64,000 bases of DNA from Salipiger pallidus (GTDB taxonomy: Bacteria > Pseudomonadota > Alphaproteobacteria > Rhodobacterales > Rhodobacteraceae), in contig NZ_BMJV01000004.1 in NCBI RefSeq assembly GCF_014643635.1, positions 310,001-374,000 on the forward strand. The letters run 5' to 3'. Made by a program: the position numbers and the translations under genes. Positions 35,695-53,710 of the stretch are shown here, in pieces. Under the pieces are notes generated by a model, which saw only the letters and a program-made list of their open reading frames with translations, ran no database searches and had not been told where the DNA came from. The number at the start of each line of letters is the position of its first letter. The stretch's first letter is position 1.

Positions 35695-36147
35695 TCACTC
35701 AGTGATGATCTTTTTCAGCAGGCGCAGCAGCGTTTCCTTCTCGCGCTCGCGCAGGGGGGCGAGGGTCTCGGCGCTGACCTTGATGGCGGCATTCACCGCC
35801 TCGTCGATAAGGGCGACCCCGTCCGGAGTGAGCGACACGAGATGCCGCCTCCGGTCGCCGGGGTCGGGGGCGGTGACGAGCAGGCCGCGCCCGATCAGCC
35901 GGTCAACCACGCCCTTGGTGGTCGCACCGTCCATGGCCACGGAACGCCCCAGAAGGTTCTGCGACATGGGGCCATCCTCGGCCAGCCGGTGCATGACGGA
36001 GAACTGCGTGGTGGTCAGGTTGCCCGGCACAAGCTCGGTGAAGATGTTGGAATTGCGCTGGTAGGCCTTGCGCAGCAGAAATCCGATCTGCTCATCAAGC
36101 AGGTAGCCATGGTCGGCCGAGGTACGGGCTCTGGGTGTATCGCTCAC
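35695..36147 (-). CDS. MarR-family transcriptional regulator
   Basis: 150 residues from GTG 36147 with GGGAGAGAG upstream; the ORF upstream of it has no better start. The winged helix-turn-helix (about 45-110) has TTQFSVMHRLAEDGPMSQ, then MDGATTKGVVDRLIGRGLL and the wing DPGDRRRHLVSLT. MarR proteins bind palindromes and are released by small aromatic ligands. It is the last gene on the strand of the ABC importer and Rieske/6-hydroxynicotinate-reductase-like operon, so it is a good candidate for its regulator, although the palindromes at 45754 and 45925 could also be read by a GntR-type protein encoded elsewhere. Confidence 0.88.
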   Translation of the reverse strand: MSDTPRARTSADHGYLLDEQIGFLLRKAYQRNSNIFTELVPGNLTTTQFSVMHRLAEDGPMSQNLLGRSVAMDGATTKGVVDRLIGRGLLVTAPDPGDRRRHLVSLTPDGVALIDEAVNAAIKVSAETLAPLREREKETLLRLLKKIITE

Positions 36148-36220
36148 GTCGTGTCTCTCTCCCTGTCGGAAAACCGGAATAGCGGCATTCCATCTGCGGG
36201 GCAACGCCTTATGGTTGTTT

Positions 36221-36241
36221 CCGGCCCCGTGAAAGGGCCGG
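36221..36241 (-). terminator. hairpin after livF
   Basis: CCGGCCC and GGGCCGG form a perfect 7-bp stem with a 7-base loop, 10 bases past the livF stop. On the minus strand it is followed by AAACAACC rather than T residues, so termination may be partial, with read-through into the MarR gene. Confidence 0.5.
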
Positions 36242-36250
36242 GGCTGGCGA

Positions 36251-36952
36251 TCAGACAGACAGATATGCATCGCGGATCTCGGGGTGCGCCTCGAGCTCGG
36301 CAAAGCTGCCGTCGAACTTCTTTTCTCCGCCTTCGATGATAATGGCACGGTCGGCCACGGCGCGGGCAAAATGCAGGTTCTGCTCGGAGATCATCACCGT
36401 CAGCCCCTCGGCCTTGAGCCTCAGTATGGTGGCGGCCATCTGTTCGACGATCACCGGGGCGATGCCCTCGGACGGCTCATCCAGAAGCAGCAGTGCAGGG
36501 TTGCCCATCAGGGTGCGGGCGATGGTCAACATCTGCTGCTCGCCCCCCGACATGTGCTTGCCCCGGTTGGCCCGGCGTTCAGACAGGTTCGGGAAGATTT
36601 CGAACAGCTGCTCGGTGGTCCAGTGCGGTGCGTCCTTGCGGGCGGGCTGACGGCCCACCTCGAGGTTTTCCAGCACCGTGAGGTCGGTGAAGATGCGCCG
36701 GTCCTCGGGCACATAGCCGATGCCACACTTGGCGACGCGGAAGGCGGGCTCGCCCACCATGTCGCGGCCCTGGAAGGTGACCGCGCCCTTGCGGGGGCGG
36801 ACCAGCTGCATCACCGATTTCATCGTCGTCGACTTGCCCGCGCCGTTGCGGCCCAGAAGTGCGACCACTTCACCCCGGCGCACCTCGAACGACAGGTCCG
36901 ACAGGATGTGGGCCTTGCCGTAATAGCTGTGAATGCCCTCGACACTAAGCAT
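36251..36952 (-). CDS. livF: branched-chain-amino-acid-type ABC transporter ATP-binding protein (LivF)
   Basis: 233 residues from ATG 36952, eight bases inside the end of livG. The ATPase has Walker A GRNGAGKST, signature MSGGEQQMLTIARTL and Walker B LLLLDEPSEGIAP, and the LivF-type ending with EGGEKKFDGSFAELEAHP. It works with LivG as a heterodimer on the fused LivHM channel. Sequence families of this class (HAAT) import amino acids, amides, urea and also aromatic acids; here the operon context points to an N-heteroaromatic compound rather than leucine. Confidence 0.93.
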   Translation of the reverse strand: MLSVEGIHSYYGKAHILSDLSFEVRRGEVVALLGRNGAGKSTTMKSVMQLVRPRKGAVTFQGRDMVGEPAFRVAKCGIGYVPEDRRIFTDLTVLENLEVGRQPARKDAPHWTTEQLFEIFPNLSERRANRGKHMSGGEQQMLTIARTLMGNPALLLLDEPSEGIAPVIVEQMAATILRLKAEGLTVMISEQNLHFARAVADRAIIIEGGEKKFDGSFAELEAHPEIRDAYLSV

Positions 36953-37715
36953 GGGTGTCCTCCTTGAAGAGCGTCCCGCCGCCAAGATAAACCTCCTGGA
37001 CCTGCGGGTTGTTGCGCACCTCTGCCGCGTTGCCGTCGGCGATGAGCTCGCCGCGGTTCAGCACCATGATGTGATGGGAATGAGCAAAGACCACATCCAT
37101 GTCGTGTTCGGTAAACAGCACGCTGACCCCCTGATCGCGCACGATGTCCGCCACCAGCTGCATGAGCTCAACCCGCGCGGTGGGGGCCATGCCCGCCGTC
37201 GGCTCGTCCATCAGCAAAAGGCGCGGCTTGTGGCACAGTGCGATGGCCAGCTCGAGGCGTTTCAGGTCGCCATAGGCCAGCACCGAACAGGGCCGGTCCG
37301 CCTGATCCTGCATGGCGACGGTCTTCAGCAGCTCCATCGCCTCATCGCGGTAAAGTCTCCACGCCCGTGGTCCGATGGTGAAGATCCGGCGGTGGTGGGA
37401 CATCAGCGCCATCTGCACGTTCTCGATCACCGTCATGGACTGATAGGTGCCGGTGATCTGGAAGGTCCGACCCACGCCCCGCCGCCAGATGTCGCGGGGT
37501 TTGTGGCCGGTGATCTCCTTGCCATCGAAGTAGACGCGGCCGTGCGTCGGCTTCAGCTGCCCCATGAGCATGTTGAAGCAGGTGGACTTGCCTGCGCCGT
37601 TGGGGCCGATGAGGGCTTTGAGCTCGCCCGCCGCGACGGAGAAGCTGACATCATTGACGGCAAGGAAGCCGTCATAGCTTTTCTTGAGGTTTTCGACCCG
37701 CAGAATCTCGGTCAT
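36945..37715 (-). CDS. livG: branched-chain-amino-acid-type ABC transporter ATP-binding protein (LivG)
   Basis: 256 residues. It has Walker A GPNGAGKST, a shortened signature region SVLAYGDLKRLELAIAL in place of a strict LSGGQ, and Walker B RLLLMDEPTAGMAP. The extra loop with EITGHKPRDIWRRGVGRTFQ is LivG-specific. The ATG at 37715 overlaps the permease stop by four bases. It partners LivF to drive uptake by the HAAT-family importer of this operon. Confidence 0.93.
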   Translation of the reverse strand: MTEILRVENLKKSYDGFLAVNDVSFSVAAGELKALIGPNGAGKSTCFNMLMGQLKPTHGRVYFDGKEITGHKPRDIWRRGVGRTFQITGTYQSMTVIENVQMALMSHHRRIFTIGPRAWRLYRDEAMELLKTVAMQDQADRPCSVLAYGDLKRLELAIALCHKPRLLLMDEPTAGMAPTARVELMQLVADIVRDQGVSVLFTEHDMDVVFAHSHHIMVLNRGELIADGNAAEVRNNPQVQEVYLGGGTLFKEDTHA

Positions 37716-39571
37716 TTCACCACCTCTTCGTCATCGTTGCGCATGCGGCGCCAGAGGGTGCGGAGCGTGCCCACGATGCCCTCGGGCATGAGGATCACCA
37801 CCGCGATGATCACGAGGCCCAGCAGCAGGCGCCAGTATTCCAGCCGCACCAGCCAGTCCTCGACGCCGGTCATGAAGCCTGCGCCGACGACCCCGCCGGC
37901 CAGCGTCTTGACCCCGCCGAGGAAGACCACGATCAGCGCGTCGAAGCTTTCGGCGATCTCGAGCACAGTGGGGAAGACCGAGCCCTTGGAGAAGACGAAG
38001 ATCCCTCCCGCAAGCCCCGCCATGACCCCCGCCAGCACGAAGGCGGCATATTGCACGCGCTTGACGTCGATGCCCATGGCCTCGGCCTGGCGTGGGCTGT
38101 CGCGTCCTGCCCGCAGGGCGTAGCCGAAGGGCGAATGGATAACATGGCGCAGGAAGACGATGCCGCCGACCCCCAGGATCAGGGTGAAGTAGTAGAAGGG
38201 CGCGGGCGCGTTGAGCCAGTCCGATGGCCAGATCCCCACCAGACCGTCATCGCCCCGTGTCACGCCGCGCCACTGGAAGGCCAGCGACCAGACCAGCTGA
38301 CTGAAGGCCAGCGTGAGCATGGCGAAATAGACGCCGGTGAGCCGGATGCAGAACCAGCCGATGGCCAGCGCCAGCATGCCCGCAGCGAGCGGGGCGAAGA
38401 GGAAGGCCAGCTCCATCGGGGTGCCCGTGTGGAAGACCAGTAGCGCCGCCGCATAGGCGCCGCCCCCGAAGAAGGCGGCATGGCCGAAGCTCACCAGCCC
38501 GCCGCTGCCGAGGATGAAATGCAGCGAGGCGGCGAAAAGTGCGAAGACGATCATGTCGACGATCAGCGTCATAACGAACTGCTCGGCAAAGAGCGGCACG
38601 AGTGCCAGCACCGCGATGAACAGCGTAACAGCGAGGATGCCCGTGCGCCCGTAGGGCCGGATGGGCTGTTCCGGGGCGCCGACCTGTCCGTGCTCGCCCG
38701 CGACTTCCTCGCGCCCGAGAATGCCATAGGGGCGCACGATGAGCACCACGGCCATCACCACATACATCAGCACGAGGGTGGACTGGGGCAGGTAAGTGAC
38801 GCCGAAGACATTGAGCACCGAGATGATCACGGCGGCGATGAAGGCCCCCGGAAGGCTACCCATGCCGCCGATGACCACGACCACGAAGACCTCGCCGATG
38901 ATGTTGAAGTCCATCAGGAGATCCGCTCCGCCCTTGGGCAGTTGCAGCGCGCCACCGAGGCCGGCGAGAGCCGAGCCGAGCGCAAAGACCCCGGTGAAGA
39001 GCCACGCCTGGTTCACGCCGAGCGCACCGACCATCTCGCGGTCCTGCGTTGCTGCCCGCACCAGCACGCCGAGACGGGTCTTCGTGATGAGATACCACAG
39101 CGCAAAGAGGATGAATGGCGTGATCGCGATCAGCACGATGTCGTACTTGGGCACAGGTTCGCCGAAGATGCGCCATACGCCGCGCAGGCCGGGGGCGCGG
39201 GGGCCAAGCTTGTCCTCGGCGCCCCAGATCATCAGCGCGAGGTCCTGGATCACGAGGATGACGCCGAAGGTGGCGACGAGCTGGAACAACTCGGGGGCCT
39301 TGTAGATCGGGCGCAGGACGATGATTTCGGTAATCGCCCCGATCAGGCCCACGGCCACCCCGGTCAGCAGGATCGCCGCCCAGAAGCCTACATGGCCGGG
39401 CAGGATTTCCATGAGGTAGATGCCGATGAAGGCCCCCAGCATGTAGAAGCTGCCGTGGGCAAAGTTGACGATCCGGGTGACGCCGAAGATCAGCGAGAGG
39501 CCGGAGGCGACGAGGAACAGGGCCGCCGCATTGGCGAGCCCCGTCAGGAACTGGGCGAGGAAGAAGGCCAT
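37712..39571 (-). CDS. fused LivH-LivM permease
   Basis: 619 residues from ATG 39571 (AAGGAAAG upstream); the frame further upstream crosses the dispersed repeat and is not coding. Residues 1 to about 300 are LivH-like (MAFFLAQFLTGLANAAALFL, then SLIFGVTRIVNFAHGSFYML). The rest is LivM-like (FILGSGGLVSFGHAAFFGGG, then FSKGSVFPTVLEIAESFDAL). About 16-18 membrane helices are visible. Both halves of the channel are usually separate proteins, so this is a fusion, a form seen repeatedly in Rhodobacteraceae. It overlaps livG by four bases. Confidence 0.92.
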   Translation of the reverse strand: MAFFLAQFLTGLANAAALFLVASGLSLIFGVTRIVNFAHGSFYMLGAFIGIYLMEILPGHVGFWAAILLTGVAVGLIGAITEIIVLRPIYKAPELFQLVATFGVILVIQDLALMIWGAEDKLGPRAPGLRGVWRIFGEPVPKYDIVLIAITPFILFALWYLITKTRLGVLVRAATQDREMVGALGVNQAWLFTGVFALGSALAGLGGALQLPKGGADLLMDFNIIGEVFVVVVIGGMGSLPGAFIAAVIISVLNVFGVTYLPQSTLVLMYVVMAVVLIVRPYGILGREEVAGEHGQVGAPEQPIRPYGRTGILAVTLFIAVLALVPLFAEQFVMTLIVDMIVFALFAASLHFILGSGGLVSFGHAAFFGGGAYAAALLVFHTGTPMELAFLFAPLAAGMLALAIGWFCIRLTGVYFAMLTLAFSQLVWSLAFQWRGVTRGDDGLVGIWPSDWLNAPAPFYYFTLILGVGGIVFLRHVIHSPFGYALRAGRDSPRQAEAMGIDVKRVQYAAFVLAGVMAGLAGGIFVFSKGSVFPTVLEIAESFDALIVVFLGGVKTLAGGVVGAGFMTGVEDWLVRLEYWRLLLGLVIIAVVILMPEGIVGTLRTLWRRMRNDDEEVVK

Positions 39572-39615
39572 GTGCGGGGCGACTTTCCTTTGAGCGGCGC
39601 ATGTAGCGGGGGCGG

Positions 39616-39634
39616 GAGGGGGCGCTGCCCCCTC
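39616..39634. repeat. palindromic hairpin attached to the dispersed repeat
   Basis: GAGGGGGC-GCT-GCCCCCTC forms a perfect 8-bp stem with a 3-base loop. The same GGGGGC-GCT-GCCCCC hairpin precedes the repeat copy at 63208. At both sites it is followed by CTCTTGGC and, just before the repeat, by a C-run (CACCCCCCGG), so the two parts make one composite element. Confidence 0.65.
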
Positions 39635-39723
39635 TTGGCGGTGGGCGCCTTTCCGGCGCTCGGCGCATTCGTGGGCGAAACCGTCCCTTGGACGGTTTCC
39701 GGGAAGCCCACTCACCCCCCGGT

Positions 39724-39744
39724 CGTATTTGCAAAGAGAAGAAA
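39724..39744 (+). repeat. dispersed intergenic repeat, copy 3
   Basis: Matches the core GTATTTGGAAAGAGAAGAAG with two changes (GC for GG; final A). It sits in the gap between the substrate-binding-protein gene and the fused permease gene, directly after the terminator-like hairpin on the minus strand, whose T-run it supplies. Confidence 0.75.
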
Positions 39745-39775
39745 CGCAGGGCCACGCGTTCTGGCCGGCCCTGCG
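39745..39775 (-). terminator. terminator/attenuator after the substrate-binding-protein gene
   Basis: CGCAGGGCC and GGCCCTGCG make a perfect 9-bp stem 14 bases past the binding-protein stop; on the minus strand it is followed by TTTCTTCTCTTTGC, a T-rich tail contributed by the dispersed repeat. It would stop most transcripts after the binding protein and let a minority continue into the permease genes. Confidence 0.75.
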
Positions 39776-39788
39776 CCTGCGTCGGGCT

Positions 39789-40994
39789 TTATTCGGCGGG
39801 ACGCATTTCACCGATCTCTTCATCGGTGGGCATGTAAGGTGCCGGGTCCTTGTATTCCCAGTCCACCATCACGCCCATGCCGTCCTCGACAGCCGTGGTG
39901 CCGACCCATGCGCCCAGCGTCGACTGGTGGTCGATGGCGCGGTAGGTCAGGTCTCCGATCGGGGTGCCGCTGACCTGCAGGTCTTCGAAGGCCTCGCGGA
40001 TCGCGTCACCCTCGGTGGAGCCAGCGGCGTTGATTGCCGCCGCGATGGATTGCGCGGTCATGTAACCCACGAGGCTGCCGATCTTGGGTGTCTCGCCCGT
40101 GGCGTCTTCGTAGGCGGCCACGAAGGTTCCCTCGGGGGTGCCGTCTTCGAAGGCGTACCAGGGGAAACCGGTCACGAACCAGCCCTCGGGGGCCTCGTCG
40201 CCTAGCGGCTCGAGGTATTCCGGCTCGCCGGTGAGCAGGCCGTAGACATCGCGTCCGTCGAACAGGCCCCGGTCGCCGCCTTCACGTACCAGCTTGGCAA
40301 GGTCGGTGCCGAAGGTGACGTTGTAGATGGCGTCGGGCTTGGCGCGCTCGATAGCCTGCACCTCGGCACCGGCGTCGATGTTGAAGAGCGCCGGCCACTG
40401 TTCGGCAACGAATTCTACGTCCGGCTTCAGGCGGGTGAGGTTCTCCTTGAAGGCGGCCACCGCGTCTTGCCCGTAGGCGTAGTTCGGGGCGATGGTGGCA
40501 TAGGTCACCGCGTCGGTCTTGGCCGCCTCTTCGGCCAGCATCGCGGCCTGCACCCAGGTCGAGGTGCGCAGGCGGTAGGTCCAGGGGTTGCCGGATTTCC
40601 ACACCAGGCTGTCGGCCAGCGGCTCGGACGCGAGGTAGAGGTAGCCCTTCTCCGCAGCGAACGACGACAGCGCGAGACCCACGTGGCTGAGGATCGAGCC
40701 GGTGAACATCACCGCGCCGTCGCGGGTCATCAGTTCCTCGGCGATCTTCACCGCCTCGGCGGGGTCGCCCTGGTCATCGCGGAAGATGAACTCGAGATCC
40801 TTGCCGAGAACGCCGCCGTCCTCGTTGATCTCGGACAGGGCCAGCTCGATCCCCTTCTTGTAGGGCTCGGCGAAGGCGGCCATGCGCTTGTAGTGGTTGA
40901 TCTCGCCGACCTTGATGCTGTCGTCCTGTGCCACGGCGGGAAGGGCAGCGGCCACGGCGACCATGCCAAGCACGGTCCGTCTGATGAAATTCAT
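39789..40994 (-). CDS. HAAT-family ABC transporter substrate-binding protein
   Basis: 401 residues from ATG 40994, with AGGAG upstream; a GTG three codons earlier is too close to the ribosome site. Signal peptide MNFIRRTVLGMVAVAAALPAVAQ, then DDSIKVGEINHYKRMAAFAEP. It is a periplasmic-binding-protein type I (Leu/Ile/Val-binding) fold with VGLALSSFAAEKGYLYLAS, APNYAYGQDAVAAFKENLTR and a DAIYNVTFGTDL segment. It captures the operon substrate in the periplasm. The usual glycine-rich amino-acid-contact motif is not clear, in keeping with a different ligand. It is separated from the permease by a terminator-like hairpin and a dispersed repeat. Confidence 0.92.
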   Translation of the reverse strand: MNFIRRTVLGMVAVAAALPAVAQDDSIKVGEINHYKRMAAFAEPYKKGIELALSEINEDGGVLGKDLEFIFRDDQGDPAEAVKIAEELMTRDGAVMFTGSILSHVGLALSSFAAEKGYLYLASEPLADSLVWKSGNPWTYRLRTSTWVQAAMLAEEAAKTDAVTYATIAPNYAYGQDAVAAFKENLTRLKPDVEFVAEQWPALFNIDAGAEVQAIERAKPDAIYNVTFGTDLAKLVREGGDRGLFDGRDVYGLLTGEPEYLEPLGDEAPEGWFVTGFPWYAFEDGTPEGTFVAAYEDATGETPKIGSLVGYMTAQSIAAAINAAGSTEGDAIREAFEDLQVSGTPIGDLTYRAIDHQSTLGAWVGTTAVEDGMGVMVDWEYKDPAPYMPTDEEIGEMRPAE

Positions 40995-41084
40995 GATCTT
41001 CACTCTCCTGTTGGATGGACTCTTTGTCGGTCCAAATCCTGTTGTTCGGGCGCGTTGGCCCGGATCACCCGGTCTTTGTGCCGG

Positions 41085-42155
41085 TTAATCGTGGTAAACA
41101 AAAGCCGGAGATGGGTCGGAGGCAATATCTTCCGTCCGTTCCAGCTCGATCAGTTCGTTGATGCGCTTGCGATAGACAAGCGGGCCCTTGTCGATGGCGA
41201 TGCGCAGGGGGCGGCGCTTCTGGGGGCGCAGCTCCTCCTGCTGGACCGCCTCGAGGATCTCCTTGTCCTCGGCGAAGGCGACGCGGAACATGGCGTCCAT
41301 ACGCTCCTCGGCCTCGGGGTCGTCCAGCGCCGTGTTGCGGATGTGCATCCAGCGGTCGATGGTGTGGGTTTCCGTGACCGGGGTCATGAAATGCAGCGCG
41401 AAGATGCGGACGCCTTGACCTCGGTCCTCTTCGGCGCAGTGCTTTTCCGTCTCGATGGAGCCGAAGTCGATGACGGCGGTGCAGGGGGTGTAGAGGTAGT
41501 AGTAATGCCAGCGGTCGACGTTGCCGGTGAAGCCGCCAAAGGCCTTGAAGAAGCCGATGGGCTCACCGTCGCGGATCCAGCGCCAGGCCACGATGGCCTC
41601 GCCTTCGGTCTGGACATGGACGGGCACGTTCTCCGACGCAGCATTGCCCAGCGTGGTGGGGTGGACGAAGCTCACATGAGCCGGATCCACGAGGTTTTCC
41701 GCCACGTTGAGGTAGTTCGATTCAAGGTGCAGCGCGTCACCGTGATGCACCGCCCATGCGGGATCGGTGAATTCGGGCATGTCGAAGACCGTTGCGGGAT
41801 CGGCCTTGGCCGGATCGCCCATCCAGATCCAGACGATGCCGTGGCGTTCCTCGATGGGGAAGGCGTCCACATAGGCGGACTTGGGAAGGTTGGTCTGGCC
41901 CGGAACCCGTACGCAGGCGCCCGAGCAGTCGAAGGTCAGGCCGTGGTAGCCGCATTGCACCGTGTCGCCGATGCGCTTGCCCTTAGACAGGGGCAGCAGG
42001 CGGTGGGGGCAGCGGTCGTCCAGCGCCGCGACCGCCCCGTCGGACTTGCGGAACATCACCACATGGTCGCCAAGGATGGTGAAGCGGCGCAGTTCGTCGT
42101 CAATTTCCGTGGACCATGCGGCCACGTACCAGGCGTTTCTTACGAACTGCGTCAT
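41085..42155 (-). CDS. Rieske non-heme iron oxygenase (VanA-type)
   Basis: 356 residues. The N-terminal Rieske [2Fe-2S] site is Cys49 and His51 in CPHR with Cys68 and His71 in CGYHG. The catalytic iron facial triad follows in ENLVDPAHVSFVH (Asp157, His160, His165). Length and layout match single-component-alpha oxygenases such as vanillate O-demethylase and N-demethylases for trigonelline- or stachydrine-like compounds. A separate reductase must feed electrons and is not encoded in the cluster. The context (pyridine-type reductase, Mo-hydroxylase, lactam hydrolase) suggests hydroxylation or N-demethylation of a heteroaromatic acid. Confidence 0.92.
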   Translation of the reverse strand: MTQFVRNAWYVAAWSTEIDDELRRFTILGDHVVMFRKSDGAVAALDDRCPHRLLPLSKGKRIGDTVQCGYHGLTFDCSGACVRVPGQTNLPKSAYVDAFPIEERHGIVWIWMGDPAKADPATVFDMPEFTDPAWAVHHGDALHLESNYLNVAENLVDPAHVSFVHPTTLGNAASENVPVHVQTEGEAIVAWRWIRDGEPIGFFKAFGGFTGNVDRWHYYYLYTPCTAVIDFGSIETEKHCAEEDRGQGVRIFALHFMTPVTETHTIDRWMHIRNTALDDPEAEERMDAMFRVAFAEDKEILEAVQQEELRPQKRRPLRIAIDKGPLVYRKRINELIELERTEDIASDPSPAFVYHD

Positions 42156-42193: not shown

Positions 42194-42772
42194 TCAGCGC
42201 AGCCCGTCCGCGCCGGTGATGTCGTCCTTGGTGAGGCCGCCGACCCGAGGGAGGGGGCGACCGGTCTGTTGCAGGGCCACCGCCACCACGATCTCGCCGG
42301 GGCGGGGGGCGTCATTCAGTTGCACACGCATGGCGTCAAAGTGGCTGCGCACATAGGCCGCATCCTTGTGACCCAGCGGCACGTCGAGCACCTCGCCCGC
42401 GCGGCCGATGGCTTTGGAGGAGGGGACCAATGCCTTGCCGCCCCCGATCACCGCCCTCAGCGGGGCGCCGAGTTTCGGGTGCAGCAGCGCGGCGGCATGT
42501 TCCAGTTCGCCCAACTCTCCCACGAGGGCGGCCTTGCCGTAGCCTTCGATGGTGTCGGGTCCGCAGCCGAGGGCCTTCAGCGCCTCTTCTCCCAGCAGCT
42601 GTCCGAGCGCCTCGCCGGTCCCCATGAGTTCCGACAGATCGTCCTCGTAGCGCGCGGCGAAGGGGTTCGCGATGACCGCCGCCGCCAGCGCACGGCGGGC
42701 GCGGGGCGAAACCTCGCGGCCCATCTCAAGCCGCGTCTCCTCGGTCAGGGTGATGAGCTTGCGCAGCTTCAC
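42194..42772 (-). CDS. amino acid synthesis family protein (DUF1185), paralogue A
   Basis: 192 residues from GTG 42772, which overlaps the stop of paralogue B by four bases (GTGA). It is a soluble alpha/beta protein with IEGYGKAALVGELGELEHAA and a closing GGLTKDDITGADGLR that is nearly the same as in paralogue B. No known catalytic motif is visible. The family name is historical, and I know of no proven reaction. Two adjacent, diverged copies suggest a heteromeric enzyme, and their fixed position between a Rieske oxygenase and UPF0280 suggests a step in the same catabolic route. Confidence 0.88.
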   Translation of the reverse strand: MKLRKLITLTEETRLEMGREVSPRARRALAAAVIANPFAARYEDDLSELMGTGEALGQLLGEEALKALGCGPDTIEGYGKAALVGELGELEHAAALLHPKLGAPLRAVIGGGKALVPSSKAIGRAGEVLDVPLGHKDAAYVRSHFDAMRVQLNDAPRPGEIVVAVALQQTGRPLPRVGGLTKDDITGADGLR

Positions 42773-43353
42773 CGCAGCCCGTCCTCGCCCTTGATGGTGT
42801 CCTTGGTGAGGCCGCCGATGCGGGCATGGACACGGCCCCCGGTGGTCATCGCCAGCACCAGAACGATCTCGTTCGGGCGGGGGGCATCTGGGATGCCGAC
42901 CTCGATGGCGTCGTAATGGGTGCGCACATAGGCGGCGTTGGTGTGGGTGATCGGCACATCGAGCCGCGCCCCCGCCGCTCCGACCTTCTTGGTCGAAGGC
43001 ACGATGGCGAGGCTTTTCTCGATGGCGTCGCGCATGGCGTAGCCACCGGGAACGTGCCAGAGCGCGCCATGCTCGATCTCGCCGTTGACGCCGGTGATGG
43101 CGCCCTTGCCGTAGCCTTCGATCAGCGATGCATCACCGCCAAGCGCGTCGATGCACATCTGCGCCATCTCGGCGCCAAGGGGTTCGAGATCCTTCATGAA
43201 GGGGGCGATGTCCTCGACATACTGCCCGGCGAAGGGGTTCTCGATCACCGCCATTGCGGCGGCGCGTTTCGTGGGTGTGTCAGGGGCGGGGCCGCCTTCG
43301 TGGAAGATGGTTTCGACCTGGACGAGGGTCTTGCGGACCTTGACCTCAGGCAT
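42769..43353 (-). CDS. amino acid synthesis family protein (DUF1185), paralogue B
   Basis: 194 residues from ATG 43353, which has GAGGAG eight bases upstream; ATG 43368 is possible. Conserved with paralogue A in IEGYGKGAITGVNGEIEHGA, THTNAAYVRTHYDAIEV and the tail GGLTKDTIKGEDGLR. Unlike A, it starts with a longer lead (VKVRKTLVQVETIFHEGG). The eight-base overlap with UPF0280 and four-base overlap with paralogue A show tight translational coupling, as for subunits of one complex. Function unknown. The repeated GYGK and His-containing segments (EHGALWH) would be the first places to look for active residues. Confidence 0.88.
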   Translation of the reverse strand: MPEVKVRKTLVQVETIFHEGGPAPDTPTKRAAAMAVIENPFAGQYVEDIAPFMKDLEPLGAEMAQMCIDALGGDASLIEGYGKGAITGVNGEIEHGALWHVPGGYAMRDAIEKSLAIVPSTKKVGAAGARLDVPITHTNAAYVRTHYDAIEVGIPDAPRPNEIVLVLAMTTGGRVHARIGGLTKDTIKGEDGLR

Positions 43354-46879: not shown

Positions 46880-49568
46880 TGCTCCCAACGGCCATATCGG
46901 CCTCACGCTCAACGGCGCCGAGATCACGGTGCCCGCGGACAGCACCATGCGCCTGTCGGAACTGCTTCGCGAGGTGGCCGGGGCGAAGGACGTGAAGGTC
47001 GGCTGCAATGCCGGCGACTGCGGCGCCTGCACGGTGCTCGTGGATGGCAATCCGGTGTGCGCCTGCCTGATGGCGGCGGGGCAGGCTCAGGGCGCGGTGG
47101 TAGAAACCCAATCCGGCCTTGTGGCGGATGATCCCATCGCCGAGCGTCTTGCGCAAAGCTTCCAGCGTCACCAGGCGGCGCAATGCGGCATCTGCACGCC
47201 GGGCATGATGGTCGCCGCCGTAGCGCTGCTGCGCCGGGGCGGAGCGTTAACCTCGGAGGCGGTCGAGGATGCCCTGGGCGGTGTGCTATGCCGCTGCACC
47301 GGATACCGCAAGATCATCGCTGCCGTGCTGGATGCGTCGGACACGGCCCCGCTGGCGGAGGGCGGGGTCGGCGCACCCATCGCGCGGCTGGACGGCTGGC
47401 CCAAGGTCAACGGCGCGGAGCGCTTCGGCGACGACGTGGCGCCTGAGGGCGCGCTGGTGGTGCGGGTGATCCGGTCGCCCTTCCACCGGGCGTCCTTTGC
47501 CTTTGGAGATCTGGATAAGTACCGCGAAGACAATGGGCTGGAGCGCATTCTTCTGGCCGCCGACGTGCCCGGAGAGAACTGTTTCGGCACCATCCCCGGC
47601 TTCGAGGACCAGCCCATGTTCGCCGAAGGCGAGACCCGCTTCAAAGGTGAGGCCATCGCCGCCGTGGTGGGGTCTACCGAGGCGGTCGAGGCCATGCAGG
47701 CCTTCCCGGTGGACTGGACCGAGCTGCCGTCAGTCACCACGCCCGATGGCGCAGGCGATGCGGCGTTGCTGCACGAAAATCGTGCGGGAAACGTCATGTG
47801 CCGGGGAATCGTCAGGCGCGGGGATGCCGCCGCTGCTTTGGCCGAAGCCCCACACCGGGTCGCGGGCGATTTCTCGACCGGTTTTATTGAACACGGCTAT
47901 ATCGAGCCCGAGGCCGCCTCGGCCATCCGCGTTGGAGACCGGCTTGAAATCCGCTGCTGCACGCAGGCCCCCTTCATGAACCGCGACGGCATCGCCCGGC
48001 TCATGGGGCTTGCGCCCGAGGCGATACGCATCAACCCCACGGCCACCGGGGGCGGCTTTGGCTCCAAGCTGGACCTGACGGCACAGCCTTATGTGGCGCT
48101 TGCGGCGTGGCTTCTGAACCGGCCCGTGCGCATCACCTATAGCCGCACCGAAAGCCTCATGTCCTCGACCAAGCGTCACCCGTCAGAGGTGCATATGGAG
48201 ATTGGCTGCGACGCCGAGGGGCGCATCACGGCGGCGCAGTTCGATGGGGTGTTCAACACCGGCGCCTATGCCAGCTGGGGCCCAACCGTGGCGAACCGCG
48301 TGCCGATCCACGCCAGCGGGCCGTACCTCACACCGCATTACGAGGCGAAAAGCGTCGGCATCCACACCAACACGGCCCCCGCCGGGGCCTTCCGGGGCTT
48401 TGGCGTGCCTCAATCGGCAGTGGCGCAGGAACAGCTTTACGACATTATGGCAGACCGGCTGGGTATTGACCGGCTGGAGTTTCGCCTGCGCAACTGCCTG
48501 CGCAACGGTGATCCTACGGTGACGGGCCAGGTGTTCGAACGCGGTATGGGCATCGACGCCTGCCTCGAGGCGCTGAAACCCAGCTGGGACGAGGCTCTGG
48601 CAGAGTGCGCCGCCTTCAACGGGGCGCATGAGGGACGCAAGCGCGGGGTGGGGATTGCCTCGGGCTGGTACGGCTGCGGCAACACCTCGATCTCGAACCC
48701 CTCGACGATCCGCGCCGGGATCACCGCAGAGGGGCAGCTGTTCCTGCATCAGGGCGCGGTGGACATTGGGCAGGGGTCCAACACCGTCATCACGCAGATC
48801 TTCGCGCAGGCGCTTGGGGTCCCGGTGGCGGACATCACGCTGGTCGGCGCGGATACCGACGTGACGCCGGACGCAGGGAAAACCTCGGCCAGCCGCCAAA
48901 CCTATATCACCGGCAATGCCGCCCGGCTTTGCGGCGAAGCGCTCCGGGCGCAGATCCTGCGACTGGGCAATGTCTCCAACGATGCCGTGATCTCGCTGGA
49001 CGGAGGGCTCACGCTGACCGACGGCGAGGCCACGGTGACGGTCCCGCTGATGGGCGAGGGTTACGCCATCGAGGCGGTGGAAAGCTACGATCCACCCACC
49101 ACGCCGCTCGACGAGAACGGGCAGGGCGATCCCTACGCGGTCTTCGGCACCGCGGCGCAGCTGTGCGTGGCCGAGGTGGACCTTGCCCTCGGGACCACCA
49201 AGCTCATCCGCATCGTCGCGGCGCATGACGTGGGCCGTGCGATCAACCCGCTGCTGGTCGAAGGCCAGGTGGAAGGCGGTGTCGCACAGGGCATCGGCCT
49301 TGCGTTGATGGAAGAGTTCCTGCCGGGCCGCACGGAGAACCTGCACGATTACCTCATTCCGACCATCGGCGACGTGCCACCCATCGACACGCTCATCATC
49401 GAGAGCGGCGACATGCATGGCCCATACGGTGCCAAAGGATTGGGCGAGCATTGCCTCATCCCCACCGCGCCCGCTGTGCTCAACGCCATCGCCCATGCCA
49501 CCGGCGCACGCATCCACCATCTTCCAGCGACGCCCGACAGGGTTCGTGCGGCGATCCGGGCGCTGTGA
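46869..49568 (+). CDS. molybdenum hydroxylase, fused [2Fe-2S] and molybdopterin subunit
   Basis: 899 residues from ATG 46869 (AAGGAGA upstream). Residues about 8-155 are the two-cluster ferredoxin domain: Cys46/51/54/66 in CNAGDCGACTVLVDG and onward, and Cys106/109 with Cys141/143 in QCGICTPGMM and LCRCTGYRK. The molybdopterin domain follows, with TGGGFGSKLDL, GAFRGFGVPQ, DIGQGSNTVITQIFAQAL and the catalytic Glu in GPYGAKGLGEHC. It hydroxylates carbon next to ring nitrogen in purines, nicotinate, isoquinoline and similar compounds. Fusing the iron-sulfur and Mo parts while keeping FAD separate is one of several known arrangements. The actual substrate is not readable from sequence. Confidence 0.93.
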   Translation: MSLDAPNGHIGLTLNGAEITVPADSTMRLSELLREVAGAKDVKVGCNAGDCGACTVLVDGNPVCACLMAAGQAQGAVVETQSGLVADDPIAERLAQSFQRHQAAQCGICTPGMMVAAVALLRRGGALTSEAVEDALGGVLCRCTGYRKIIAAVLDASDTAPLAEGGVGAPIARLDGWPKVNGAERFGDDVAPEGALVVRVIRSPFHRASFAFGDLDKYREDNGLERILLAADVPGENCFGTIPGFEDQPMFAEGETRFKGEAIAAVVGSTEAVEAMQAFPVDWTELPSVTTPDGAGDAALLHENRAGNVMCRGIVRRGDAAAALAEAPHRVAGDFSTGFIEHGYIEPEAASAIRVGDRLEIRCCTQAPFMNRDGIARLMGLAPEAIRINPTATGGGFGSKLDLTAQPYVALAAWLLNRPVRITYSRTESLMSSTKRHPSEVHMEIGCDAEGRITAAQFDGVFNTGAYASWGPTVANRVPIHASGPYLTPHYEAKSVGIHTNTAPAGAFRGFGVPQSAVAQEQLYDIMADRLGIDRLEFRLRNCLRNGDPTVTGQVFERGMGIDACLEALKPSWDEALAECAAFNGAHEGRKRGVGIASGWYGCGNTSISNPSTIRAGITAEGQLFLHQGAVDIGQGSNTVITQIFAQALGVPVADITLVGADTDVTPDAGKTSASRQTYITGNAARLCGEALRAQILRLGNVSNDAVISLDGGLTLTDGEATVTVPLMGEGYAIEAVESYDPPTTPLDENGQGDPYAVFGTAAQLCVAEVDLALGTTKLIRIVAAHDVGRAINPLLVEGQVEGGVAQGIGLALMEEFLPGRTENLHDYLIPTIGDVPPIDTLIIESGDMHGPYGAKGLGEHCLIPTAPAVLNAIAHATGARIHHLPATPDRVRAAIRAL

Positions 49569-49815
49569 GCATGAGCGAAAGCCTTGGCGCGGCGAAGAGG
49601 CGCAAGCGGCCGGATTGGCCCGGCTTGTGCGCTATGAACACGAACCGTCTCAGCGCCGATGCGCCAATGGGATGGCCTCATGAAGATACCCCGGTGAGCC
49701 GGGCCATTGCCCAAGCGGCCCTCGCGATGACGACGGGGCGCCCGGCTCGTTTCACCAAGCTCGCGCCCTGTCCCGCATGTTCGAGATTTCAGATGACACC
49801 GAAAAGGCCCCGCAG

Positions 49816-51873
49816 ATGACTGACAAGACACTCACCGGTAGCTTTGCGGGCATCGACGTGGGCGGCACCTTCACCGACCTCGTGCATTACGACAGCACCG
49901 CGCGGGCGGTGAAGCTGGCCAAGGTGCCCACGACGCTCGACAACCAGTCGCATGGCGTGCTTGCGGCGCTGGATGCGGCGGGGGTCGATGCGGCGGCGCT
50001 CGATCTTATCGTGCATGGGACCACGACCACCACGAACGCAGTGCTGGAGCGGCAATTGTGCAAGACCGGCCTCGTGACCACCATGGGCTTCCGTGATGTG
50101 CTCGAGCTGGGCCGCCGCACGCGGCCCCACGCCTATGGCATGACCGGCCAGTTCCGCCCGCTGATCCCCCGCGATCTGCGCCTCGAGGTGCCCGAACGGA
50201 TGTTGGCCGACGGGTCGGTCCATGTGGCCCTCGACGAGCACGCCCTGCGCGACGCGTTGGCACAGCTGGTGCAGGAGGGCTGCGAGGCGCTGGTCATCCA
50301 CTTCTTGCACTCCTACGCCAATCCAGCCCACGAAAGGCGCGCCGGCGAGATCGCCCGCGAGGTCTGGCCCAACGGCAACATCACCATGGGCCACACGCTG
50401 ATCTCGGAATCGCGCGAATACGAACGTGGGGTGACGGCGGCGGTGAACGCCTCGGTGCAGCCCCTCCTGCGCCGCTACGTCGAGCGGCTCGCGGACAAGC
50501 TGTCCGAGCGTGGCTATGACCGGGACCTGCTGGTGATGAACGGCAACGGCGGCATGGTGTCGGCCCGGGTGGTGGCCGAGGAAGCCGCCAAGACGGTGAT
50601 GTCCGGCCCCGCCTCGGGCGTGATGGCTGCCGCCTACACGGGGCGCCGCGCCGGCATTCCCGACCTTCTGACCTATGACATGGGCGGCACCTCGACGGAT
50701 GTGGCGATGATCCGGGGCGCGGACCCGGCGGTCAGCCACGAGATCGAGGTGGAATATGCCATGCCCATCCACGTCCCCATGGTGGACGTGCGCACCGTGG
50801 GCGCGGGCGGCGGGTCGATCGCACGGATCGACGCAGCGGGCCTGCTGCAGGTGGGGCCGGACAGCGCGGGCTCGACCCCGGGGCCGATCTGCTACGGCAA
50901 GGGCGGCACGCTTCCGACCATCTCTGACGCCAACATGGCGCTGGGCCGGCTCAACCCCGACCGGCTGAACACCGGGGCGGGGGGCGTGTCGCTCGACACC
51001 ATCCGCGATGCCTTTGCCTCGCTGGGCGCGGGCCTCGGGCTAGCCGCCGACGAGGCCGCCGCCGCCGTACTGCGCGTTGCCAACGCGAAGATGGCCGACG
51101 CGGTGCGCATGGTGTCGATCTCGCTTGGTGAAGATCCGCGCGATTTCGCGCTCTTTGCCTTTGGAGGGGCAGGGCCGCTGCACGCCTGCGCCATCGCGCG
51201 CGAGCTGGGCGTGCCCCGGGTGCTGGTCCCGGCGCGGCCCGGCATCACCAACGCGCTTGGCTGCGTTGTGGCGGACCTGCGCCACGATTTCGTGGCGACG
51301 GTGAACAAACCGCTCGACGCCTGCGACATGGACGAGGTGCACGCGCTCTTCGCCCGCCAGATCGAGGACGGCCGCGCCGCCATCGCCCGCGAGAGGGTCG
51401 AGATCGCCGAAGAGCGCATCGCCCATTCGGTCGAGATGCGCTTCATCGGCCAGACCCACCTGCTGCGGGTGCCGCTGGACTCGGCCAAGCCCAGCCGCGA
51501 AGAGCTTCAGGCGCTCTTTGAAGACGCCTATTTCAAGCGCTTCCAGGTGCGCCTGCCGGAGATTCGCCCGGCGCTGGTGAACGTGAACAGCTCGGTCGTA
51601 GGCCGCCGCCCCGAGATCGACCTCTCGGCGCTGATCGACGCCTCCGAGCGCAAGCCATCGCTCCCCGAGGCGCAGACCGCCACCCGGCCCGTGTTCTTCG
51701 AGGACTGGACAGACACGCCGGTCTACTGGCGCGACCACCTGCCCGCCGATGCCACCCTGAGCGGCCCGGCCATCGTCGAGCAGATGGACTGCACCCTCGT
51801 GCTGGAACCTGGTGATACCGCCGAACAGGATGATGACGGCAATCTCATCGTGACAGTGGGGGCAGGCGCATGA
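49816..51873 (+). CDS. hyuA: hydantoinase/oxoprolinase subunit A (HyuA type)
   Basis: 685 residues from ATG 49816 with GAAAAGG upstream; ATG 49777 is possible. The actin-like ATPase fold is marked by FAGIDVGGTFTDLVHYD, VHGTTTTTNAVLERQ, TYDMGGTSTDVAMI and FAFGGAGPLHACAIARELG. With subunit B it uses ATP to open a cyclic amide (hydantoin, 5-oxoproline, N-methylhydantoin or a related lactam). In this cluster the expected substrate is the oxo-lactam produced by the 6-hydroxynicotinate-reductase-like enzyme. The gene follows the Mo-hydroxylase gene after a 247-base gap in which I see no gene. Confidence 0.92.
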   Translation: MTDKTLTGSFAGIDVGGTFTDLVHYDSTARAVKLAKVPTTLDNQSHGVLAALDAAGVDAAALDLIVHGTTTTTNAVLERQLCKTGLVTTMGFRDVLELGRRTRPHAYGMTGQFRPLIPRDLRLEVPERMLADGSVHVALDEHALRDALAQLVQEGCEALVIHFLHSYANPAHERRAGEIAREVWPNGNITMGHTLISESREYERGVTAAVNASVQPLLRRYVERLADKLSERGYDRDLLVMNGNGGMVSARVVAEEAAKTVMSGPASGVMAAAYTGRRAGIPDLLTYDMGGTSTDVAMIRGADPAVSHEIEVEYAMPIHVPMVDVRTVGAGGGSIARIDAAGLLQVGPDSAGSTPGPICYGKGGTLPTISDANMALGRLNPDRLNTGAGGVSLDTIRDAFASLGAGLGLAADEAAAAVLRVANAKMADAVRMVSISLGEDPRDFALFAFGGAGPLHACAIARELGVPRVLVPARPGITNALGCVVADLRHDFVATVNKPLDACDMDEVHALFARQIEDGRAAIARERVEIAEERIAHSVEMRFIGQTHLLRVPLDSAKPSREELQALFEDAYFKRFQVRLPEIRPALVNVNSSVVGRRPEIDLSALIDASERKPSLPEAQTATRPVFFEDWTDTPVYWRDHLPADATLSGPAIVEQMDCTLVLEPGDTAEQDDDGNLIVTVGAGA

Positions 51874-51924: not shown

Positions 51925-51945
51925 CGTATTTGGAAAGAGAAGAAG
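51925..51945 (+). repeat. dispersed intergenic repeat, copy 4
   Basis: Exact match to the consensus core GTATTTGGAAAGAGAAGAAG. It lies in the 160-base gap between hyuA and hyuB and faces copy 5, which is inverted 24 bases further on, so the pair can fold into a long hairpin. Confidence 0.85.
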
Positions 51946-51969
51946 CGTGGGATTGTGCGCGCGCCCCTG

Positions 51970-51990
51970 CTTCTTCTCTCCAAAAATACG
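51970..51990 (-). repeat. dispersed intergenic repeat, copy 5 (inverted)
   Basis: On the minus strand it reads the consensus with TTTTGGAGA in place of TTTGGAAAGA. It is the only copy in reverse orientation and forms an inverted pair with copy 4 inside the hyuA-hyuB gap, about 45 bases before the hyuB start. Confidence 0.8.
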
Positions 51991-52033
51991 CAAATTCCAA
52001 GCCCGCCACACAGACCTGCGCCGGAGTATCGCG

Positions 52034-53710
52034 ATGAGCCTCGATCCCATCACCCTCACCGTCATCCAGTCGGGCCTGCAGCAGGTCTGCGACGAGATGG
52101 ACCTCTCGTTCTCCCGCGCGGCCTTCTCCCCGGTGATCGCCGAAGCCAACGACCGCTCTGACGGGATCTATTCCGCGGAGGATGGCAGCCTGATCGCGCA
52201 AGGCTCCATGGGGCTGCCGGTCTTTGTCGGGGTCATGCAGTATTCCACCGCGACGCTGATCGAAATGATCCGGGACGGCAAGGTGGGCGCACCGACGCCC
52301 GGCGACATCTACATCGTCAACGATCCATATCTTGGCGGCACCCACCTGATGGACGTGCGCTTTGCCATGCCCGTGTGGCGGGACGGCAAGATCTTCTGCT
52401 GGCTCAGCAACACCGGCCATTGGCCCGACACCGGCGGCGCGGTGCCGGGGGGCTTTTCCGCGTCCGCCACGGCGGTCGAGCAGGAGGGGCTGCGCCTGCC
52501 ACCCGTGAAGCTTTTCAAGAACGGCGAGCTCGACCAGGAGATCTATTCGATCATTTGCTCCAACATCCGCGTGGCCGACCAGCGCATCGGCGACGTCAAG
52601 GCGCAGGCGGCGGCGCTTTACGTCGGCGAGGCGCGGCTGACCCGGCTGCTCGACCGGTACGGTGACGACACCGTGCGCGAGGCCATCGCCGAGCTGCGGA
52701 CCCGCGCCGCCGATCAGATGCGCAGCCGCATCGCCGGGATCGCGCCGGGCACCTATCGCTCCACCGCCTATATCGACAGCGACGGCGTGGTGAACGAGCC
52801 TCTTGAAATCAGGCTTGCCATCACCGCCGACGGCGACACTCTCACCTTTGATTTCGACGGCTCGAGCCCGCCCTGCATGGGGCCGATGAATTCCGTCATC
52901 GCAACGACGCTGAGCTCGGTCTACCTTGGCATGAGGCACATCTTCCCCGAGGTGCCGATCAGCGCCGGTGCCTTCGAGCCGCTCAACATCATCCGTCCCG
53001 AGGGCACCTTCCTCGATGCGCGCTATCCGCGCCCGGTGTCGGGCTGCGCCGCCGAGGTCAGCCAGCGCATCGCCGAGGCGGTCTTTGCCGCTCTGGTTGA
53101 GGCGCTTCCGGGCAAGGTGTCGGCGGCGCCCGCAGGATCTTCGGGCAACTTCGCTCTTGGCGGCGAGGTGCCACAGACCGGGCAGAGCTATGTCATGTAC
53201 CAGATCTCGGGCGGCGGCTACGGCGGCTATGCGGGGGGCGACGGCATCTCGAACGGTTGCTCGACCATCGGCATCTCCAAGGCGCCCCCGGTCGAGATCA
53301 TGGAACAGCAGTTTCCCGTCCTCTACCATCGCTATGCCCTGCACGAAGGGTCCGGCGGGGCCGGGGAGCATCGGGGTGGCTTCGGCCTCGACTACGAGGT
53401 GGAGATCCTGCGCGGCCATGCGCGCGCCAGCTTCGTGATGGACCACGGGCGGTTCGGCCCGCAGGGGGCGCTTGGGGGCGGCGACGGCAAGGTCAACGAG
53501 GTCGCCGTGACGCGCGGGGGCGAGACGTTTACCCCTGAGCACCTGTCCAAAGCGCAGGACATCCAATTGACTGCCGGAGACCGGGTGCGGGTGAAGACGC
53601 CGGGGGGCGGGGGCTATGGCGATCCGGCCAAGCGCGACCGCGCCAAGGTGGCCGAGGATGTGAGGCTGGGCCGGTACACCGCCGAGGAGGCAAAGTGGCT
53701 CTTTGGCTGA
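52034..53710 (+). CDS. hyuB: hydantoinase/oxoprolinase subunit B (HyuB type)
   Basis: 558 residues from ATG 52034; the upstream part of the frame crosses the repeat. Typical motifs are MSLDPITLTVIQSGLQQVCD, FSPVIAEANDRSDGIYS, DIYIVNDPYLGGTHLMD, WLSNTGHWPDTGGAVPGG and the glycine-rich end GRFGPQGALGGGDGKVNE with TPGGGGYGDP. It is the lactamase partner of HyuA. The pair should be assembled as a large heteromer in the cytoplasm. The operon gap before it carries an inverted pair of dispersed repeats and no obvious promoter. A strong hairpin (53898-53930) ends the transcript. Confidence 0.93.
   Translation: MSLDPITLTVIQSGLQQVCDEMDLSFSRAAFSPVIAEANDRSDGIYSAEDGSLIAQGSMGLPVFVGVMQYSTATLIEMIRDGKVGAPTPGDIYIVNDPYLGGTHLMDVRFAMPVWRDGKIFCWLSNTGHWPDTGGAVPGGFSASATAVEQEGLRLPPVKLFKNGELDQEIYSIICSNIRVADQRIGDVKAQAAALYVGEARLTRLLDRYGDDTVREAIAELRTRAADQMRSRIAGIAPGTYRSTAYIDSDGVVNEPLEIRLAITADGDTLTFDFDGSSPPCMGPMNSVIATTLSSVYLGMRHIFPEVPISAGAFEPLNIIRPEGTFLDARYPRPVSGCAAEVSQRIAEAVFAALVEALPGKVSAAPAGSSGNFALGGEVPQTGQSYVMYQISGGGYGGYAGGDGISNGCSTIGISKAPPVEIMEQQFPVLYHRYALHEGSGGAGEHRGGFGLDYEVEILRGHARASFVMDHGRFGPQGALGGGDGKVNEVAVTRGGETFTPEHLSKAQDIQLTAGDRVRVKTPGGGGYGDPAKRDRAKVAEDVRLGRYTAEEAKWLFG

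What the first reader, a model, noticed from the sequence alone, without database searches (positions are those of the whole stretch)
35695..53710. Complete import-to-ring-opening cluster for an N-heteroaromatic compound
Two divergent operons combine a HAAT-type importer, a Rieske oxygenase, a molybdenum hydroxylase (46040-49568), a 6-hydroxynicotinate-reductase homologue (44212-45714) and an ATP-dependent lactam-opening HyuA/HyuB pair (49816-53710), plus a MarR regulator. Established chemistry of these families gives an ordered route: hydroxylate beside the ring N, reduce to an oxo-lactam, hydrolyse the lactam. The Rieske enzyme could add an N-demethylation or extra hydroxylation, which would fit N-methylated marine pyridine acids such as trigonelline or homarine. 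The exact substrate, and whether this cluster has been described, I cannot tell from sequence.
Basis: partly seen in the sequence, partly recalled or inferred. Interest (0 to 1): 0.78.

Follow-up and report, generated by a model that had tools for sequence, protein, structure and literature searches.

The report
Marine trigonelline and nicotinate breakdown cluster
This gene cluster of a marine bacterium most likely imports the vitamin-B3 relative trigonelline, strips its methyl group to give nicotinate and opens the ring by a known reductive route with a swapped last enzyme; it points to a candidate demethylase gene and to a job for a protein family of unknown function.

Summary
The genes are real and form a conserved catabolic cluster. 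The core (Mo hydroxylase, 6-hydroxynicotinate reductase HNR, UPF0280, AA_synth, MarR) matches the reductive nicotinate route described for Bradyrhizobiaceae, here with HyuAB instead of the enamidase-like amidohydrolase. Of 163 long unique loci, 72 carry the amidohydrolase, 35 HyuAB, none both. The Rieske gene travels with one clade of the importer. Its orthologs occur in 13 of 292 order genomes, all with a nicotinate route: 11 with HNR, 2 with the chemically different NicC/NicX maleamate route instead. The shared intermediates are nicotinate and 6-hydroxynicotinate, so the Rieske enzyme most likely makes nicotinate, by N-demethylating trigonelline; homarine is disfavoured. UPF0280 occurs in exactly the 77 of 292 genomes that have HNR and has an ApbE (flavin transferase)-like fold; I propose that it loads HNR's flavin. 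All activities are inferred. New variant of a known kind.

The parts
35695..36147 (-). MarR regulator (likely GTG start at 36147)
   Evidence: Pfam MarR; start read; a homologue at 40% identity or more lies in 129 of 163 long HNR loci
36251..36985 (-). HAAT ABC transporter ATPase (LivF type)
   Evidence: Pfam ABC_tran 8.1e-32
36945..37715 (-). HAAT ABC transporter ATPase (LivG type)
   Evidence: Pfam ABC_tran, BCA_ABC_TP_C
37712..39823 (-). fused LivH-LivM permease (703-aa ORF; annotated homologues have about 620 aa, so the true start probably lies near 39571)
   Evidence: BPD_transp_2, two stretches; homologue lengths
39789..41003 (-). substrate-binding protein of the importer, Rieske-linked clade
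   Evidence: Peripla_BP_6; PDB 3i45 E=7.5e-133; tree
41085..42155 (-). Rieske/VanA_C oxygenase, proposed trigonelline N-demethylase (C49-H51-C68-H71; H160, H165, D297)
   Evidence: Pfam; best PDB match dicamba O-demethylase 1e-49; near-invariant residues in 30 sequences
42194..42772 (-). AA_synth (PF06684/DUF1185) copy 2, function unknown
42769..43368 (-). AA_synth (PF06684/DUF1185) copy 1, function unknown
   Evidence: PDB 3byq 1.7e-61
43346..44215 (-). UPF0280 protein with ApbE-like fold, proposed flavin-loading partner of HNR
   Evidence: PDB 2o34; profile comparison with ApbE; fold search; same 77 of 292 genomes as HNR
44212..45714 (-). 6-hydroxynicotinate reductase homologue (HNR)
   Evidence: homologues named so in deposited records; 69-70% identical to the Bradyrhizobium copies listed
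45755..45766 (.). putative regulator operator TTTGTATACGAA
45926..45937 (.). second putative operator TTTGTGTGCGAA
46040..46879 (+). Mo hydroxylase FAD subunit
46842..49568 (+). Mo hydroxylase fused [2Fe-2S]-molybdopterin subunit, proposed nicotinate 6-hydroxylase
   Evidence: PDB relatives
49777..51873 (+).
   Evidence: Hydantoinase_A; caprolactamase alpha model 501 bits, below its cut-off of 1000
51947..53710 (+). HyuB, ATP-dependent lactamase subunit
   Evidence: Hydantoinase_B 3.1e-158

Best explanation
A trigonelline (N-methylnicotinate) and nicotinate catabolic cluster. (1) The HAAT importer takes up the betaine (inferred). (2) The Rieske monooxygenase oxidises the N-methyl group; formaldehyde leaves and nicotinate remains (inferred; nicotinate as the product is well supported by context, trigonelline as the substrate is the simplest natural choice). 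(3) The Mo hydroxylase makes 6-hydroxynicotinate. (4) HNR reduces it to 1,4,5,6-tetrahydro-6-oxonicotinate (THON), with UPF0280 supplying or attaching HNR's flavin (proposal). (5) HyuAB opens the lactam with ATP in place of the enamidase, giving 2-formylglutarate and ammonia (inferred). (6) The MarR protein controls both divergent operons from the TTYGTNYRCRAA sites (inferred). Steps 3-5 follow the published route by homology; no activity was measured here.
For: The core fits the nicotinate cluster of Bradyrhizobiaceae (PMC3511419, passages; Bradyrhizobium loci L230-L232 etc. hold HNR, UPF0280, AA_synth, NicAB, importer, MarR and amidohydrolase). The window's 12-row HyuAB clade of HNR lies in a 22-row set (SH-aLRT 95) with 6 amidohydrolase rows, and the sister rows of the window's nine-row subclade (L103, L036, L037) carry a NicAB-type enzyme instead of the window's Mo hydroxylase. 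MoL type 128, NicB type 27, both 0, neither 8 of 163 loci. Amidohydrolase 72, HyuAB 35, both 0, neither seen 56 of 163. Rieske orthologs (69-100% identical; next hit 44%) in 13 of 292 order genomes: 11 have HNR, the other two have NicC, none has neither; hypergeometric 3.8e-8, not corrected for kinship. In G199 the Rieske gene lies near NicC (PDB 5eow 2e-157), NicX (7cn3 1.4e-91), NicB and genes of the NicD, NicE and NicF protein families. Six further class-sample genomes with the Rieske gene all have HNR. Rieske-linked binding proteins fall on one side of a 100/99 branch. The best solved relative of the Rieske enzyme is a demethylase, dicamba O-demethylase; the N-demethylase NdmA also matches.
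Against: No substrate was tested. The solved relatives of the Rieske enzyme also include saxitoxin hydroxylases (SxtDIOX, SxtT), ranked above NdmA. The Rieske gene is absent from 66 of the 77 HNR genomes and 4 of the 6 NicC genomes, so the link runs one way. L036 and L037 have the Rieske-linked importer type without the Rieske gene, and G024/G115 show no ortholog, so that importer may also serve nicotinate. L190, at the base of the other HNR clade, carries two Rieske genes (61 and 63%) and no AA_synth. No dedicated Rieske reductase lies in the cluster; the own genome has an FNR at 57% identity elsewhere and only a 30% match to the VanB-like reductase. THON is an enamide whose opening should not need ATP (own knowledge), so HyuAB could mean a different lactam. 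56 of 163 loci show neither opener in the stretch held.
Confidence: 0.62

Rival explanations
1. Nicotinate cluster in which the Rieske enzyme acts on another nicotinate derivative (methoxynicotinate, N-methylnicotinamide, an alkylated or ring-substituted nicotinate).
For: Same context evidence; the closest solved relative is an O-demethylase, and hydroxylases match too.
Against: Such compounds are less abundant in the sea than trigonelline (own knowledge; papers that name trigonelline in marine metabolomes were seen only as a search listing).
Confidence: 0.2
2. The cluster degrades a different pyridine acid, such as homarine/picolinate or isonicotinate, with HyuAB opening a non-activated lactam.
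For: HyuAB type, ATP-dependent; a separate HNR clade (46 rows) with HyuAB or no opener and no amidohydrolase may well serve another substrate, and its HyuA proteins are related to the window's.
Against: The window lies outside that clade, next to NicAB-bearing clusters, and its Rieske gene has orthologs with NicC/NicX nicotinate clusters. The homarine gene paper (doi 10.1038/s41564-026-02313-7, seen only as a citation) was not held, so its genes could not be compared.
Confidence: 0.12
3. A purine- or aldehyde-type Mo enzyme in an unrelated lactam or hydantoin pathway.
For: The Mo subunit's best PDB relatives are aldehyde oxidoreductases (1sij 2.4e-97), above nicotinate dehydrogenase (3hrd_A 1.8e-65, one of two Mo chains); its best NCBIfam models are xanthine dehydrogenase types, below cut-off.
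Against: PDB rank may reflect the fused architecture; the Mo enzyme and NicAB replace each other in the same clusters, never both.
Confidence: 0.04

Closest known systems
Nicotinate degradation cluster of Azorhizobium/Bradyrhizobium/SG-6C (THON route; PMC3511419, passages read)
   Same: [quoted passage not shown] the accessions named in the paper were not compared themselves
   Different: Mo enzyme is FAD + [2Fe-2S]-Mo instead of NicAB; HyuAB instead of the amidohydrolase; added Rieske gene; importer of another clade
Eubacterium barkeri nicotinate fermentation (recalled; paper not held)
   Same: Mo hydroxylase, then HNR, then ring opening
   Different: no enamidase and no downstream fermentation genes seen here
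Pseudomonas putida nic maleamate pathway (recalled)
   Same: nicotinate hydroxylation first; Rieske orthologs occur near such genes in G199 and on the same contig in G236
   Different: the window genome has no NicC match
Acinetobacter tgn trigonelline pathway (recalled)
   Same: same proposed substrate
   Different: recalled to open the ring directly, without nicotinate; not compared by any search
Dicamba/vanillate O-demethylase Rieske family
   Same: fold family and metal-ligand motifs
   Different: substrate; no reductase gene in the cluster
ApbE flavin transferases
   Same: UPF0280 shares the fold and GGD, ATSG and ADAxAT motifs
   Different: catalytic His not conserved; HNR lacks the DxxSGAT target motif

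Membership tests
Nicotinate THON route (Azorhizobium/E. barkeri type) | HNR homologue | tested here: met
   69-70% identical to the copies of Bradyrhizobium loci; gene set
Nicotinate THON route (Azorhizobium/E. barkeri type) | Mo-dependent nicotinate hydroxylase | tested here: inconclusive
   Mo hydroxylase present and interchangeable with NicAB by context; substrate not shown
Nicotinate THON route (Azorhizobium/E. barkeri type) | enamidase (amidohydrolase) | tested here: not met
   none found in the cluster; HyuAB instead. The rest of the own genome was not searched for it
Nicotinate THON route (Azorhizobium/E. barkeri type) | 6-hydroxynicotinate and THON as intermediates | not testable with these tools
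   needs biochemistry
P. putida nic maleamate route | 6-hydroxynicotinate 3-monooxygenase NicC | tested here: not met
   no match in G000 at E<=1e-60 or E<=1e-90
Rieske (VanA/DMO) demethylases | Rieske CxH-CxxH and 2-His-1-Asp iron motifs | tested here: met
   C49/H51, C68/H71, H160, H165, D297 conserved in at least 29 of 30 sequences (assignment to iron by recalled DMO numbering)
Rieske (VanA/DMO) demethylases | demethylation of trigonelline | not testable with these tools
   context only
HyuAB/oxoprolinase lactamases | Hydantoinase_A and _B domains | tested here: met
Caprolactamase CapA (NCBIfam equivalog) | score over the curated cut-off | tested here: not met
   501 bits against 1000
ApbE flavin transferases (for UPF0280) | ApbE fold | tested here: met
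   Foldseek ranks 3-40 are all ApbE/Ftp/FmnB, E 4e-5 to 0.03, TM-scores modest; hhalign 95.5%, E 1.4e-8
ApbE flavin transferases (for UPF0280) | Pfam ApbE gathering score | tested here: not met
   20 of 30 members match at E<=1; window 17.9 bits against 25.6
ApbE flavin transferases (for UPF0280) | catalytic Asp-Ser-His (V. cholerae Asp285-Ser241-His257; PMC12052999, passages read) | tested here: not met
   Ser166 and Asp192 invariant, candidate His position 173 variable in 30 sequences; correspondence by motif and by the alignment
ApbE flavin transferases (for UPF0280) | DxxSGAT-type target motif in the partner (HNR) | tested here: not met
   0 of 190 HNR sequences
Homarine catabolic operon | homology to the published homarine genes | not tested
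   paper not held

The most novel reading that the evidence does not exclude
UPF0280 is a dedicated cytoplasmic flavin-loading enzyme of HNR, an ApbE-like protein that works without the catalytic His and without the DxxSGAT motif, that is, by a new attachment chemistry; and the Rieske gene is a so far unnamed bacterial trigonelline N-demethylase, joined to a nicotinate route whose enamidase was displaced by an ATP-dependent HyuAB lactamase.
Probability: 0.3. Interest if true: 0.78.

Novelty: new variant of a known kind. Interest (0 to 1): 0.62.

Why it matters
Trigonelline is a common nitrogen-bearing solute of marine phytoplankton (own knowledge), and I found no published bacterial gene for its demethylation in the searches made (open-licence papers only). 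The cluster gives a named candidate and marker genes to look for in seawater data. It also ties two widespread families without known function (UPF0280, AA_synth) to one reaction, and suggests that UPF0280 handles flavin, which can be tested in a single co-expression. HyuAB in place of an enamidase shows how this pathway is rebuilt from exchangeable parts.

Tried and rejected
Homarine as substrate: disfavoured for this cluster because Rieske orthologs go with NicC/NicX nicotinate clusters; the homarine paper itself could not be read.

HNR structure: AlphaFold from 20 sequences gave mean pLDDT 59.9, too poor for a fold search; not used.

Canonical ApbE flavinylation motif in HNR: not found in 190 sequences; 4 hold a loose [ST]GA[ST].

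Mo-subunit relatives in the PDB did not separate substrates. NCBIfam gave no family over its cut-off for the Mo enzymes and nothing for HNR or the amidohydrolases. Paper searches for UPF0280 (0 papers), 3I45 (0), homarine operon, 6-hydroxynicotinate reductase and trigonelline catabolism gave no description of this cluster in their listings. That PDB 3i45 holds nicotinate is only a recollection and is not used as evidence.

Specificity residues of the binding protein: only one position separates the two SBP clades at 95% (Ser114 against Asp), so the ligand could not be read from sequence.
Full report
What is there. The minus-strand operon reads, from 45714 downwards: HNR, UPF0280, AA_synth 1, AA_synth 2, Rieske, binding protein, fused LivH-LivM, LivG, LivF, MarR. 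The plus-strand operon reads MoF, MoL, HyuA, HyuB. The window is G000:C4:310001-374000 of a 4.44-Mb assembly. Its closest named relatives by HNR are Salipiger, Sagittula, Pseudosulfitobacter and Actibacterium, 83-88% identical (near records of the own genome may be left out of those lists). Neighbours outside are an MFS protein, a dihydroorotate dehydrogenase and an aconitase.

How common. HNR has a near full-length match in 77 of 292 order genomes; a 78th (G150) is a 47-residue fragment and was dropped. It also matches 33 of 398 phylum-sample genomes at E<=1e-3, overlapping the first set and including one 32-residue fragment. From these, the G-handle stretches and seven plasmid records I collected 190 loci, 187 unique by HNR core, 163 of them at least 19 kb. 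Each of the 77 genomes has one near full-length HNR.

Core and exchangeable parts. Of 163 loci, UPF0280 is in 161 and at least one AA_synth in 156. The Mo enzyme is the MoL type in 128, NicB type in 27, both in 0, neither in 8. The ring opener is the amidohydrolase in 72, HyuAB in 35, both in 0 and neither seen in 56. With independent loci 15.5 would hold both (probability of none 3.7e-11), but the loci are related, so this number overstates the case. The amidohydrolase type always carries AA_synth 2 (72 of 72); the HyuAB type nearly always AA_synth 1 (34 of 35), with AA_synth 2 in 13 of 35. Presence was decided by identity cut-offs to window or reference proteins, so a diverged gene can be missed, and genes beyond the stretch held are not seen.

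Trees. In the HNR tree (179 rows, quick method, SH-aLRT only) a 46-row clade holds 17 HyuAB rows, 29 rows without an opener and no amidohydrolase; most of its rows have AA_synth 1 alone, and its basal row L190 is odd (two Rieske genes, no AA_synth). The other 133 rows hold all 78 amidohydrolase rows and 17 HyuAB rows. The window's 12 HyuAB rows form a clade (100) inside a 22-row set (95) that also holds 6 amidohydrolase rows; three more HyuAB rows (L106, L202, L208) sit elsewhere among amidohydrolase rows. In the HyuA tree these two groups form one 15-row set (99), so HyuAB was probably handed between backgrounds. L103, L036 and L037, the sisters of the window's nine-row subclade, use NicAB-type Mo enzymes. 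I read this as displacement of the enamidase within one pathway, nicotinate.

The Rieske gene. Of 187 unique loci 24 hold it at 60% identity or more (L188, at 54%, was not counted); in 21 of the 24 the next gene is the binding protein. Binding proteins split 25 to 42 across a 100/99 branch: 21 of the 25 rows have the Rieske gene; L117 has it just outside the first stretch (L256); L198, L036 and L037 show none; the 42-row side has none and includes PDB 3i45. Genome-wide, orthologs at 69-100% identity occur in 13 of 292 order genomes, the next hits being at 44% or below (E<=1e-70). Eleven of the 13 have HNR. The two without it, G199 and G236, are two of only six genomes with NicC; the other four NicC genomes and 66 of the 77 HNR genomes have no Rieske ortholog. 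In G199 the Rieske gene has its own reductase with FAD, NAD and [2Fe-2S] domains, a TctABC importer and a MarR gene, and stands near an SSF symporter, NicC, NicB and, downstream, genes of the NicE, NicD, NicX and NicF families (NicX and NicC by PDB match, NicD, NicE and NicF by Pfam family and order only). In G236 the same nic genes lie on the same 48.6-kb contig, about 21 kb away. A class sample of 385 genomes gave six more orthologs at 58-67% (E<=1e-120); all six genomes have HNR, five with the Rieske gene in the HNR cluster, the sixth (G913) on another contig. Two routes with different chemistry share only nicotinate and 6-hydroxynicotinate, so the Rieske product should be nicotinate. Its best solved relative is an O-demethylase, with an N-demethylase and hydroxylases further down, and the natural N-methyl derivative is trigonelline. 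The last step is inference.

UPF0280. It is found in 77 of 292 genomes at E<=1e-15, exactly the 77 with HNR. The window protein has no Pfam hit at 0.001 and a sub-threshold ApbE hit at 0.0024; 20 of 30 members match ApbE at E<=1, best 3.2e-5. Profile comparison with 12 ApbE proteins gives 95.5% and 1.4e-8 over 90 columns. A profile search of PDB sequences found DVU1097 (2o34) but no ApbE. The AlphaFold model (pLDDT 93.5) matches DVU1097 first and then only ApbE/Ftp/FmnB structures down to rank 40; TM-scores to these are modest (0.28-0.51 by query length). The ApbE Ser and Asp of the triad given in PMC12052999 (passages) have invariant counterparts, the His does not. I recall, without a held source, that the E. 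barkeri reductase carries a covalent flavin. Together this suggests that UPF0280 loads HNR's flavin. Against it: no DxxSGAT motif in HNR, so the chemistry would differ.

Regulation. TTYGTNYRCRAA occurs between the divergent operons (45755, 45926). In 12 window-clade loci 27 sites were found against 0.4 in mononucleotide shuffles; 44 against 4.8 in 59 amidohydrolase loci without NicB, 49 against 0.8 in 22 NicB loci, 20 against 0.6 in 23 other HyuAB loci. At least one site lies in the divergent or HNR upstream region in 11 of the 12; in L036 the only site is elsewhere. That the MarR protein binds there is inferred.

Limits. Nothing was measured. The loci are not independent. The paper most likely to bear on homarine was not available.

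Noticed in passing
HNR clade of 46 rows, e.g. L048, L054, L105, L063, L222 and L235 (SAR116): A second, widely spread variant: MoF-MoL-HNR-UPF0280 with mostly AA_synth 1 alone, HyuAB or no opener nearby, never the amidohydrolase. It may serve another pyridine acid; homarine is worth testing (I recall a six-gene hom operon name, not verified).
   Followed up: partly
L101 (Sagittula stellata) 13057-13884; own genome G000:C5:133024-133824: A ferredoxin-NADP reductase gene lies between MoF and HNR in L101, L102, L170 and L172 but is absent from the window cluster; the own genome has a 57% identical copy elsewhere. Likely electron donor of HNR and perhaps of the Rieske enzyme.
   Followed up: partly
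L105:14897-16270: A 457-aa protein without Pfam match has relatives at 30% identity or more in 35 of 163 long HNR loci, often beside a HAAT importer.
   Followed up: no
L103 (Paracoccaceae bacterium La 6 plasmid) 4312-5634 and 18407-19333: HNR cluster without Rieske gene but with a gene annotated as nitrilotriacetate monooxygenase and a TauD-type dioxygenase gene: possible other ways into the same route.
   Followed up: no
window:42194-43368: Two tandem AA_synth (DUF1185) genes; the family has solved structures (3byq, 2qtp) but no function known to me, and at least one copy is in 156 of 163 long HNR loci.
   Followed up: partly
L104 (Sulfitobacter pontiacus plasmid) 1105-9371: Beside the amidohydrolase-type cluster lie acyl-CoA dehydrogenase, hydratase, 3-hydroxyacyl-CoA dehydrogenase, AMP-binding and SDR genes, candidates for the lower pathway from 2-formylglutarate; none of these adjoins the window's cluster.
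   Followed up: no
L190 (Minwuia thermotolerans MAG): Two adjacent Rieske genes (61 and 63% identical to the window's) next to HNR and UPF0280, no AA_synth and no importer detected.
   Followed up: no
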